This document shows positions 23,775 through 30,852 of a DNA stretch of 36,290 nucleotides, in pieces. This DNA comes from Coriobacteriia bacterium (GTDB taxonomy: Bacteria > Actinomycetota > Coriobacteriia > Coriobacteriales > Eggerthellaceae). The translations under genes and the position numbers were made by a program. How positions within the stretch are numbered: the stretch's first letter is position 1; each line of letters begins with the position of its first letter. Where the stretch lies: assembly GCA_030523425.1 (NCBI GenBank), contig JAUNIP010000014.1, forward strand, positions 1-36,290, given 5' to 3'. Below the pieces are notes generated by a model. That model searched no databases. It saw nothing but the letters and a program-made list of their open reading frames with translations, and was not told where the DNA came from.

Positions 23775-23823
23775 TTTCTGGTGGTCAGAGGGGGACTTGA
23801 ACCCTCGACACGCGGATTTTCAG
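23775..23823. repeat. Left attachment site (49-bp direct repeat)
   Basis: It is identical to 30804-30852. It holds a tRNA-Phe fragment from the anticodon loop through CCA, plus four flanking bases. This remnant lacks the D-arm and 5' acceptor strand, so it cannot form a tRNA. Confidence 0.93.
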
Positions 23824-23848
23824 AAAGGTAATCCCTGGTCAGACTGGA

Positions 23849-23877
23849 ATTTTAGTGCATTCTTGTCACGGTTACAA
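23849..23877 (-). promoter_or_regulatory. Outward-facing promoter candidate at the left end of the element
   Basis: On the minus strand TTGTAA (23872-23877) and TAAAAT (23849-23854) are 17 bases apart. Transcription would leave the element through the left att site and reach the flippase gene, though it must first pass the old tRNA terminator. It may replace a link to the tRNA promoter lost on insertion. Confidence 0.5.
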
Positions 23878-23915
23878 GCCCCCAAAACCCCGCAAATACC
23901 CCCCTTTGCCCTGCT

Positions 23916-23939
23916 AACATTTGCACCAACATTTGCACC
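23916..23939. repeat. Two adjacent 12-bp repeats, left integrase arm-site candidate
   Basis: AACATTTGCACC occurs twice without a gap, 92 bp inside the left att copy. The same pair, with one mismatch in the second copy, lies at 30730-30753 by the other end and in the same direction. Position and symmetry fit arm-type sites for the N-terminal domain of the integrase. Confidence 0.65.
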
Positions 23940-23969
23940 AATTTTTAAGGCCACGAACACGGAGCAGAA

Positions 23970-24152
23970 AGGACCAACGAAGACCGGATAGCCCAGGCAT
24001 GCGAGGAAGTGAAAGGCGTTGCCGCCCTGCTGCGGGCAACCATCGAGCAGCCCAGCGAGGTTTCGAACGAACAACTGCTGGTTCTTGCGCAGGCCCTGGA
24101 CGCAGCCGCGGCGCATCTCGAAGGCGCGGCGGAAGCCCGCCAGGGGGCCTAA
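23970..24152 (+). pseudogene. Small ORF with a degraded start codon
   Basis: An open frame of 60 codons reads TNEDRIAQACEEVKGVAAL and on to a stop at 24150-24152, with an acidic-helical make-up that looks protein-like. Five bases after a GGAG site the first codon is AGG where ATG would be expected, a one-base change. The next usable start is GTG at 24009, which lacks a properly spaced ribosome site and would give 47 residues. I therefore read it as a possibly silenced gene at the left end of the element. No function can be given. A chance ORF in GC-rich DNA remains possible. Confidence 0.4.
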
Positions 24153-24211
24153 TCCAGCCGCAGCGGGGCCGTTTCACCGTTTCCGGCATAAGTACCCACA
24201 ACGGCATGAAA

Positions 24212-24239
24212 ACCCGCCCAGAATCGCCCCTGGGCGGGT
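24212..24239. terminator. Strong hairpin at the left end of the element
   Basis: A perfect 10-bp stem (ACCCGCCCAG with CTGGGCGGGT) has an 8-base loop. It is followed by CTTCT on the plus strand and by TTTTC on the minus strand. It may end transcripts from both sides: the small ORF from the left and the long minus-strand operon from the right. The 540 bp between the left att site and 24367 hold no confident gene; this hairpin, the arm repeats, the outward promoter and the small ORF are what I see there. Confidence 0.6.
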
Positions 24240-24330
24240 CTTCTGCGCGCCTTCCCGGCGCGTTTCTGTTGGAAAACGGGGAATTTCTCTCTTGCTGGGT
24301 ATCCCCCTGCGTTGCTGCGCCCCCCTTCTG

Positions 24331-29298: not shown

Positions 29299-29313
29299 GA
29301 AGGAGAAAAGGAA

Positions 29314-30711
29314 GTGGCACGGAAGAAGAAAGACCTGAAGCAATACGGGGCCGGGACGGTAAAGCCCGTTCTTGGCAAGGACGGCGCGCAGAAGACGGGC
29401 AAGAGCGGCGGCTTGCTGTGGGCTGTCCGAATCAGCCTTGGGACAGACCCCGTGACCAAGGTCGTTCGCCAGAAGCAGGAACGCTTCGAGGGCACGGAAA
29501 AACAGGCATACGACCACGCGGCGGCAATGCGCGAGGAAGCGAGCGGGAAGGGCCTTCGCACCGAAGACCAAGCCCAGACCTTCAGCGGCTTCATTCCCAT
29601 CTGGGCGGCATCGCTCCGGCTGAAGAACCGCGCGAACGAAAAGACCATAGCGGACTACCTGCAAAAGCTGGCGCACATGGAAAGGTACATCGGAAAGAAG
29701 CGAATGGAGGAAGTAACGGAACGGGACATTGAAGCCGCCTTGGTCAGCCTGAAAAACGAAGTGCAGGTGAACCCCAGCACCGGACGGAAGACCACGCTCG
29801 GAAATTCCTCGCTCCACAAGGTCTACCAGTTCACGAAGCGCGTCTTCAAGTTCGCCCACGTCCGCGGCTACATAAGCCGGAACCCCTTCGAGCTGGTGGA
29901 CGCGCCCACCCCGGACAAGGCCCGCAGGCGTTCGCTAACCGTGGAGGAATGCCGCACCCTGCGCGCGAAGATGGACGAAAAAGAAGCGGCCCTTCTGGAA
30001 GAGTACGGCGCAAAGGAGCAACGCCAGACGGCACACGGGAACCTGTTCGGGCGCGGGAACGTCTTCGGGCTTGCCAACCTTTCCGCCCTCATGGGCGTTC
30101 GAATCGCGGCGGCAACCGGAATGCGCCGGGGCGAGGTCTGCGCCCTGCTTTGGGAAGCCGTGGACTTGGAGCGCGGAACGGTCGAGGTATGCCGCACACT
30201 GACCGAAGAAATGGTGGTGAAGGACCCGAAGACGAAGGCGGGCTTCCGAACCATCACGCTAGACGCGGACACCCTGGAAAAGCTTCGCTGGTGGAAGGCC
30301 CGGCAAAAGGCAATGCTCCTTTGCGTGCAGACGTTGGAGGAAGGCGCGCTGGTGTTCGCCAAGCAGACCACGACAACGCCCGTGGTCTGCAACGGCGAAG
30401 GGGGGCTTTTCGACCCAACGCACTTCGAACGCTTCTGGCTGGCCTTCCGCAAGGAAGCGGGCTTTCCTGATTTGAAGCTCCACGAGCTGCGCCACACGGC
30501 GGCAACCATGCAGCTTTCGAGCGGCATCGACATTGCCACGGTCAGCCGCAGGCTGGGCCACAGCAAGGCTTCGACCACCCTCGATTTCTACGCCCACGCC
30601 CTGCCCACCAACGATGAAAAGGCGGCGGACGTTATGGCCCGGGTCTATGCGGCGAAGCCCCAGCCCGTCTTAGTCCAGGCGGGCATAAAGAGGGAGCGGG
30701 GAACCGCCTAA
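29314..30711 (+). CDS. int: Tyrosine-recombinase integrase
   Basis: This 465-residue integrase should catalyse insertion into and excision from tRNA-Phe. The N-terminus (about 1-85) is a basic arm-binding domain with the phrase SGGLLWAVRISLG. A core-binding SAM-like domain spans about 90-190. The catalytic domain shows Arg271 (ATGMRRGEVCAL), Lys308, His390 and Arg393 (LHELRHTAA), His416 (RLGHSKAS) and the nucleophile Tyr426 (DFYAHAL), so the set is complete. The GTG start at 29314 follows AGGAGAAAAGG. A terminator overlaps the stop codon. The gene lies next to the tRNA end of the element, as is usual. Confidence 0.96.
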   Translation: MARKKKDLKQYGAGTVKPVLGKDGAQKTGKSGGLLWAVRISLGTDPVTKVVRQKQERFEGTEKQAYDHAAAMREEASGKGLRTEDQAQTFSGFIPIWAASLRLKNRANEKTIADYLQKLAHMERYIGKKRMEEVTERDIEAALVSLKNEVQVNPSTGRKTTLGNSSLHKVYQFTKRVFKFAHVRGYISRNPFELVDAPTPDKARRRSLTVEECRTLRAKMDEKEAALLEEYGAKEQRQTAHGNLFGRGNVFGLANLSALMGVRIAAATGMRRGEVCALLWEAVDLERGTVEVCRTLTEEMVVKDPKTKAGFRTITLDADTLEKLRWWKARQKAMLLCVQTLEEGALVFAKQTTTTPVVCNGEGGLFDPTHFERFWLAFRKEAGFPDLKLHELRHTAATMQLSSGIDIATVSRRLGHSKASTTLDFYAHALPTNDEKAADVMARVYAAKPQPVLVQAGIKRERGTA

Positions 30712-30724
30712 AAGGCGGCTTTTT
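30704..30724 (+). terminator. Integrase terminator
   Basis: CCGCC-TAAAA-GGCGG is followed by CTTTTT. The loop contains the integrase stop codon. It prevents reading into the convergent tRNA-Phe. Confidence 0.8.
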
Positions 30725-30729
30725 GGTGC

Positions 30730-30753
30730 AACATTTGCACCAACTTTTGCACC
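30730..30753. repeat. Two adjacent 12-bp repeats, right integrase arm-site candidate
   Basis: AACATTTGCACC and AACTTTTGCACC stand side by side 50 bp inside the right att copy. They match the left pair in sequence and direction. The first copy with its flank also forms GGTGCAA-CAT-TTGCACC, an inverted repeat. Confidence 0.65.
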
Positions 30754-30763
30754 GGACAAAAAG

Positions 30764-30797
30764 AAATGTGGGAAGCCCGAAAAAACAGGCTCCCCAC
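30764..30797 (-). terminator. Element-borne terminator for tRNA-Phe
   Basis: On the minus strand GTGGGGAGCCTG pairs with CGGGCTTCCCAC across a TTTTTT loop (stem at 30768-30797), then ATTTCTTTTT follows. It lies ten bases beyond the tRNA CCA end and replaces the terminator now at 23748-23770. Confidence 0.8.
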
Positions 30798-30803
30798 CTG
30801 GGG

Positions 30804-30852
30804 TTTCTGGTGGTCAGAGGGGGACTTGAACCCTCGACACGCGGATTTTCAG
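30804..30852. repeat. Right attachment site (49-bp direct repeat within tRNA-Phe)
   Basis: It is identical to 23775-23823. It covers tRNA-Phe from the anticodon loop to CCA and four more bases. The intact tRNA remains on this side because the element supplies a perfect copy of the 3' half. Confidence 0.93.

What the first reader, a model, noticed from the sequence alone, without database searches (positions are those of the whole stretch)
23775..30852. Compact self-replicating element in tRNA-Phe with satellite-like gene order
Seen: a 49-bp perfect att duplication, a complete tyrosine integrase, an AlpA/Xis-like protein, a PriCT/primase-helicase, and two divergent units. No mobilisation or particle gene is present. 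Known: Gram-positive phage-inducible islands place the integrase unit divergent from AlpA-primase genes. Inferred: this is a minimal satellite or replicating island of Coriobacteriia, 7 kb and smaller than typical PICIs, with zinc-binding proteins in place of known repressor and interference genes.
Basis: partly seen in the sequence, partly recalled or inferred. Interest (0 to 1): 0.8.

Follow-up and report, generated by a model that had tools for sequence, protein, structure and literature searches.

The report
Minimal satellite-like island in tRNA-Phe
A 7-kb genetic island in a tRNA-Phe gene of a Coriobacteriia bacterium has what it needs to cut itself out and replicate but nothing to build a particle, and it is one of about 27 similar tiny islands found across this bacterial class, which probably spread by riding in phages.

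Summary
A 7,078-bp element (23775-30852) lies between perfect 49-bp copies of the tRNA-Phe 3' half. It has an intact tyrosine integrase, a zinc protein, an AlpA/Xis-like protein, a PriCT_2-AAA_25 primase-helicase and three further small genes, and no relaxase, FtsK, terminase or structural gene. New here: paired 12-bp direct repeats lie just inside both ends. Such arm-type sites, in the same geometry but with element-specific sequence, occur in 23 of 27 att-bounded elements found across Coriobacteriia (24 of the 27 are 4.3-7.4 kb). One relative in another family (L138, tRNA-Leu, 6.6 kb) carries the same unit. Several relatives carry a lone small terminase; one (L073, 13.2 kb) carries a head-and-packaging set without tail genes, like a capsid-forming PICI. 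So this is a minimal phage-satellite-type island, closest in plan to PICMIs and Gram-positive PICIs. It fails the strict PICI size criterion, and the wider group shares att sites with prophages. The host assembly has no detectable PHROG-2 large terminase, so a helper would probably come from outside. Helper-dependent packaging is inferred, not shown.

The parts
23775..23823 (.). distal att core (49 bp), displaced 3' half of tRNA-Phe
   Evidence: exact copy of 30804-30852
23916..23939 (.). distal integrase arm-type sites: two tandem AACATTTGCACC, start-to-start 12 bp, 92 bp inside the core
   Evidence: 0 of 54 and 0 of 33 control pairs reach the score
24009..24152 (+). possible small helical ORF (47 aa) convergent with the left operon; other small ORFs occupy this place in L081, L083, L084, L088, L095, L113
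   Evidence: weak, start codon uncertain, no sequence similarity shown
24367..24960 (-). 197-aa protein (c6): HTH, CxxC..CxxC zinc motif, long C-terminal helix; relatives in satellites L083, L084, L088, L095, L113 and in prophages L102, L107
24905..25186 (-). 93-112-aa cysteine-rich protein (start at 25186 or 25243); no homologue found in 138 family genomes
25342..25390 (.). 17-bp perfect inverted repeat, 15-nt loop, overlapping the end of the helicase gene; origin or terminator not decided
25365..27515 (-). 716-aa primase-helicase, PriCT_2 plus AAA_25 (RepA-like), Walker A ADSKAGKT; PHROG 2597 DNA primase
   Evidence: 33-38% identical to phage primases/helicases
27508..27951 (-). 147-aa protein (c7), adjacent to alpA; found next to AlpA in 12 of the 15 small elements that have it
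27951..28142 (-). 63-aa AlpA/Xis-like HTH_17 protein; likely recombination directionality factor and/or activator
   Evidence: only solved relative by sequence is 4J2N Gp37, E 0.025
28267..29298 (+). 343-aa protein with C-terminal CxxC..YC..C zinc motif (c4), first gene of the integrase unit, in the place where L076 and L077 carry an XRE-type protein
29314..30711 (+). 465-aa tyrosine integrase, complete catalytic motifs
30730..30753 (.). proximal arm-type sites: AACATTTGCACC and AACTTTTGCACC, start-to-start 12 bp, starting 74 and 62 bp from the core
30804..30852 (.). proximal att core (49 bp)
30808..30883 (-). tRNA-Phe (GAA), intact, integration target

Best explanation
It is a minimal, helper-dependent phage-satellite-type island. 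While integrated it is silent; the zinc protein beside the integrase is a candidate regulator. When a helper phage, probably arriving from outside, triggers it, AlpA acts as excisionase and/or activator. The integrase then uses the 49-bp core and the paired 12-bp arm sites at both ends to excise the element as a circle, leaving tRNA-Phe intact. The PriCT_2-AAA_25 primase-helicase, perhaps with the AlpA-adjacent 147-aa protein, replicates the circle. The helper's terminase and capsids package it, and it integrates again at tRNA-Phe. Shown by sequence: boundaries, arm-like sites, intact integrase and primase-helicase, absence of particle and mobilisation genes, recurrence of the unit elsewhere. 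Inferred: induction, excision, replication, packaging, transfer.
For: Exact att pair and intact tRNA. Arm pairs at both ends, a geometry shared by 23 of 27 elements with element-specific sequence; for each of the 23, no control pair reached its score. The same unit in another family and another tRNA, with att repeats (L138). 24 of 27 att-bounded elements are 4.3-7.4 kb; of 25 small elements 24 have the integrase, 22 AlpA, and alpA-c7 is adjacent in 12 of 15. Of 127 other proteins from 24 of these elements, the PHROG families hit most are primases, helicases, DnaC/DnaD loaders, regulators and a lone terminase small subunit. L073, a bounded 13.2-kb relative in the same integrase clade (support 100/100), has portal, protease, capsid, HNH, TerS and TerL but no tail genes. 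Lowest E-values among the listed phage-record integrases are Streptococcus satellite phages (3e-26). The gene plan parallels the experimentally proven PICMI (int, alpA-up1-prim; PMC10803314).
Against: The element encodes no recognisable TerS, capsid-redirecting or interference protein, so nothing in it points to a helper. No PHROG-2 TerL was detected in the host genome. Integrases of small elements and prophages are interleaved in the tree. The c6 and c7 families also occur in prophages. No record of this element in phage, plasmid or viral-contig collections. No excision, replication or transfer data.
Confidence: 0.68

Rival explanations
1. A deletion remnant of a prophage: only the integration and replication end of a 31-42-kb prophage is left.
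For: Prophages of the class use the same integrase/AlpA/replication module (L086/L112, L114/L129, L143, L144), and c6 and c7 also occur in prophages.
Against: Both arm pairs and both att cores are intact, all main ORFs are open, the same compact plan recurs in many unrelated genomes and tRNAs at 4.3-7.4 kb, and L138 repeats the unit in another family. Prophage-type helicases form their own clade, with the window outside it (96/96, though the window is on a long branch).
Confidence: 0.12
2. A self-replicating integrative element that is mobilised by a conjugative helper in trans (relaxase-less IME-like), or spreads only by generalized transduction.
For: Integrase, Xis and replication genes are enough for an excising replicon; an oriT could be hidden; no packaging gene is present.
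Against: No relaxase or FtsK/T4SS gene here and none among the most frequent families of the relatives; some relatives carry TerS or a full head set instead.
Confidence: 0.15
3. An immobile relic: once a satellite, now fixed, with a lost regulator.
For: The small XRE gene (c3) found in most same-family relatives is missing, as are TerS and the 210-230-aa coiled-coil-like gene; no close relative was found in 398 genomes.
Against: All main genes, both arm sites and both cores are intact. L124, a bounded 8.6-kb element, also has AlpA as first gene without c3.
Confidence: 0.05

Closest known systems
PICMI (phage-inducible chromosomal minimalist islands, Vibrionaceae; PMC10803314)
   Same: Very small; int plus a second gene at int; alpA, one small unknown gene, then primase; no capsid or terminase gene; att-bounded
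   Different: tRNA-Phe instead of fis; PriCT_2-AAA_25 instead of DUF3987/DUF5906 primase; 343-aa zinc protein does not overlap int; phylum Actinomycetota; helper unknown
Gram-positive PICIs (SaPI-type; Streptococcus satellite phages)
   Same: Integrase unit divergent from an AlpA and primase/replication unit; no structural or lytic genes; lowest E-values among listed phage-record integrases are Streptococcus satellites (27% identity)
   Different: 7 kb instead of 12-15 kb; no TerS; no XRE/Stl-like repressor, a zinc protein in that position; att sites of the wider group are shared with prophages
cf-PICI (capsid-forming PICIs; described in PMC10690885)
   Same: L073, of the same integrase clade, has portal, protease, major capsid, connector, HNH, TerS, TerL and no tails within exact att repeats
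   Different: The window element itself has none of these genes
Candidate PICIs of Mycobacterium (PMC10654092) and Mulch/Flayer satellites of Streptomyces (PMC10690885)
   Same: Actinomycetota; some Mycobacterium ones use tyrosine integrases in tRNA genes
   Different: They carry capsid genes; no close sequence kinship with the window element was seen in the phage collection

Membership tests
PICI (criteria of PMC6092414) | integrase, replication module and regulator in conserved divergent order | tested here: met
   regulator function of AlpA and c4 inferred
PICI (criteria of PMC6092414) | no phage structural or lytic genes | tested here: met
PICI (criteria of PMC6092414) | size about 12-15 kb | tested here: not met
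   7,078 bp
PICI (criteria of PMC6092414) | att sites never occupied by prophages | tested here: inconclusive
   tRNA-Phe not checked for prophages; within the group the feature fails: the core of L124 matches the tRNA-Leu attP of E. lenta clade-1 prophages (PMC8778435)
PICI (criteria of PMC6092414) | induction by, packaging in and interference with a helper phage | not testable with these tools
   needs a cultured host and phages
PICMI | int, alpA and prim co-located, reduced gene set | tested here: met
PICMI | primase with DUF3987/DUF5906 | tested here: not met
   PriCT_2 plus AAA_25 instead
PICMI | integration beside fis | tested here: not met
   tRNA-Phe
cf-PICI | own capsid, TerL, TerS, HNH | tested here: not met
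   absent in the window; met by relative L073
AICE (pSAM2-type) | TraB/FtsK-like translocase | tested here: not met
   no FtsK domain; defining feature from general knowledge
IME | relaxase | tested here: not met
IME | oriT used by a conjugative helper | not testable with these tools
   no oriT model available

The most novel reading that the evidence does not exclude
Coriobacteriia hold their own class-wide lineage of minimal phage satellites (about 4-7 kb), which swap replication modules freely (PriCT_2-AAA_25, Toprim plus RepA, Prim-Pol/VapE, DnaB-like, DnaD plus DnaC). They keep a fixed arm-site geometry whose sequence changes with the integrase, and grade from packaging-gene-free elements such as this one, through TerS-only forms, to a capsid-forming one.
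Probability: 0.5. Interest if true: 0.72.

Novelty: new variant of a known kind. Interest (0 to 1): 0.55.

Why it matters
No paper found in the searched library links Coriobacteriia to phage satellites. If true, a common group of gut bacteria carries a large, unrecorded population of very small satellites. They give clean natural tests of the smallest gene set a satellite needs, of what triggers it without TerS or a known repressor, and of how arm sites and integrases change together across tRNA targets.

Tried and rejected
Close relatives by conserved-peptide scans of viral and genome contigs: none for the helicase, and one distant integrase fragment, L128. Structure of c6: HTH, zinc and long helix (pLDDT 76), no PDB match at E below 1. 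Structure of c4: low confidence (pLDDT 60); Foldseek top rows are LAGLIDADG nucleases at TM 0.33 or less; VIA rows are all Z 6.2 or less; one long-covering row is DUF1470 (3h0n), a weak hint of a CGNR-like zinc protein, not used. TerS or the recurrent 210-230-aa satellite protein hidden in the window element: not found. L086, L114 and similar loci were first taken for possible capsid-forming islands but proved to be prophages with defence cargo. L082 is not counted as a clear member (no arm sites; cargo unlike the rest); L156 lacks an integrase. Rfam: only the tRNA. AEP-type primase motifs seen by eye in the middle of the helicase gave no Pfam match. Consensus promoter and terminator scan gave nothing above chance for terminators and little for promoters.

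Full report
Observation. The window holds a 49-bp exact direct repeat (23775-23823 and 30804-30852) whose right copy is the 3' half of tRNA-Phe (30808-30883, minus). It is by far the longest exact repeat in the window; no unrelated pair reaches 18 bp. Joining the left flank and left core to the right flank gives a whole tRNA-Phe. Between the copies lie seven clear genes plus one doubtful small ORF. Pfam, PHROGs, NCBIfam and PADLOC assign a tyrosine integrase, an AlpA/Xis-type HTH_17 protein and a PriCT_2-AAA_25 primase-helicase, and nothing structural, lytic, terminase-like, relaxase-like or FtsK-like. GC is 64% against 61% in the flanks.

Ends. AACATTTGCACC occurs twice in tandem 92 and 104 bp inside the distal core, and once exactly plus once with one mismatch 74 and 62 bp from the proximal core. 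Such paired sites, 11-13 bp apart, at both ends and at similar distances, occur in 23 of 27 att-bounded elements, each with its own sequence. For each of the 23, none of the 30-38 random interior pairs of the same element reached its score. Of the four exceptions, L148 and L151 show a partial signal and L157 and L082 are not distinguishable from controls. These are most simply integrase arm-type sites. Both ends of the window element therefore look intact, which is hard to square with a random deletion remnant.

Relatives. Searches of 138 genomes of the same family with each protein, then of 398 genomes of the class with c4 and c7, and reading of the surrounding DNA gave 27 att-bounded elements in tRNA-Phe, Ala, Val, Met, Asp, Thr, Pro, Leu, Arg and Lys genes. 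Of these, 24 are 4.3-7.4 kb (counting L082, a doubtful member); the others are 8.6 (L124), 9.7 (L075) and 13.2 kb (L073). Of the 25 that remain without L073 and L082, 24 have the integrase, 22 an AlpA-like protein, 15 c7 (12 of them next to AlpA), 10 the zinc protein c4 and 6 the protein c6. The sample is biased, since loci were found with the window's proteins. Five of the 27 elements, the window included, sit in tRNA-Phe.

The same unit elsewhere. L138 (another family of the same order) is a 6.6-kb element in tRNA-Leu with a 33-bp att repeat and arm pairs at both ends. It holds a 773-aa primase-helicase (33% over 619 aa), an AlpA-like protein, c7, a 75-aa cysteine-rich protein, a small XRE protein, c4 (46% over its zinc domain) and an integrase (27%). 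No close copy of the window element was found.

Satellite character. Among 127 proteins from 24 small elements, the PHROG families hit most often are primases, helicases, DnaC/DnaD loaders, regulators and terminase small subunit; only 25 of 75 families are printed, so rare hits are not excluded. L149, L160 and L161 share one TerS-like gene family, and L150, L151, L153 and L154 another HTH family in the same place; each is followed, directly or after one small gene, by a 182-227-aa protein, and profile comparison links some of these proteins to those of L109 and L077, and of L083, L084 and L095. L073 (13.2 kb, tRNA-Ala, chromosomal genes outside its left end) carries portal, protease, major capsid, connector, HNH, TerS and TerL but no tail genes, the set given for capsid-forming PICIs in PMC10690885. 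Its integrase sits with the window's in a 100/100 clade. That clade also holds the prophage L114, so integrases do not separate satellites from prophages.

Replication modules differ between relatives: PriCT_2-AAA_25 (window, L089, L138), Toprim plus short RepA (L073, L079, L094), Prim-Pol/VapE (L086, L158), DnaB-like (L077, L081), DnaD-like with or without a DnaC-like loader (L075, L109).

What the window element lacks. It has no recognisable TerS, none of the recurrent 182-230-aa proteins and no small XRE gene. L138 and L124 also show no TerS. The 343-aa zinc protein is in the position where L076 and L077 carry XRE-type proteins, so a regulator role is plausible but unproven. c6 is shared with prophage early regions, so it may act on a helper phage, but this is a guess.

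Host. No PHROG-2 large terminase was found in the host assembly (99.4% complete), so a resident helper prophage with that gene family is unlikely. Other TerL families were not tested.

Comparison. The plan int plus neighbour gene, divergent alpA - small gene - primase matches the experimentally proven PICMIs (PMC10803314) and resembles Gram-positive PICIs (PMC6092414). Strict membership fails for PICI on size, and for PICMI on primase family and site. Known actinobacterial satellites (PMC10654092, PMC10690885) carry capsid genes. No paper found links Coriobacteriia with phage satellites; the library is incomplete, and the SatelliteFinder survey was not available.

Taxonomy. The class is Coriobacteriia: a same-family genome hit (G036:C179) has the same coordinates as a named record of an uncultured Coriobacteriaceae bacterium. 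Eggerthellaceae is likely but not shown.

Verdict. The element is real, bounded and of a recurrent kind, most probably a minimal phage-satellite-type island. Shown: anatomy, ends, recurrence. Inferred: excision, replication, helper packaging.

Noticed in passing
L112, L129, L123, L130 (prophages in G135, G122, G089, G112): Prophages of one TerS/TerL/portal type carry large defence cargo next to the portal gene, between portal and major capsid where both are seen: McrBC with two cytosine methylases (L112), a BREX set BrxA/B/C/PglZ/BrxL (L129), Snf2-type helicases (L123; L130 by similarity). A defence hotspot inside the head operon.
   Followed up: partly
L073:6-13168 (G101 contig 1, 950005-963168): A 13.2-kb capsid-forming PICI-like element in tRNA-Ala with exact 50-bp att repeats; a good lead in its own right.
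   Followed up: partly
L109:9019-9642, and L077, L083, L084, L095, L150, L151, L153, L154, L155, L160, L161: A 206-230-aa protein of unknown function recurs near the end of many small elements, often right after a TerS-like gene; a candidate packaging or capsid-size protein.
   Followed up: partly
window 25342-25390: 17-bp perfect inverted repeat with 15-nt loop at the end of the helicase gene, followed by a T run on the plus strand although the genes there run on the minus strand.
   Followed up: no
L081:5169-5600: A small element in tRNA-Met encodes a sigma-like phage transcription-regulator family protein (PHROG 36, Sigma70_r4), possibly to steer helper late genes.
   Followed up: no
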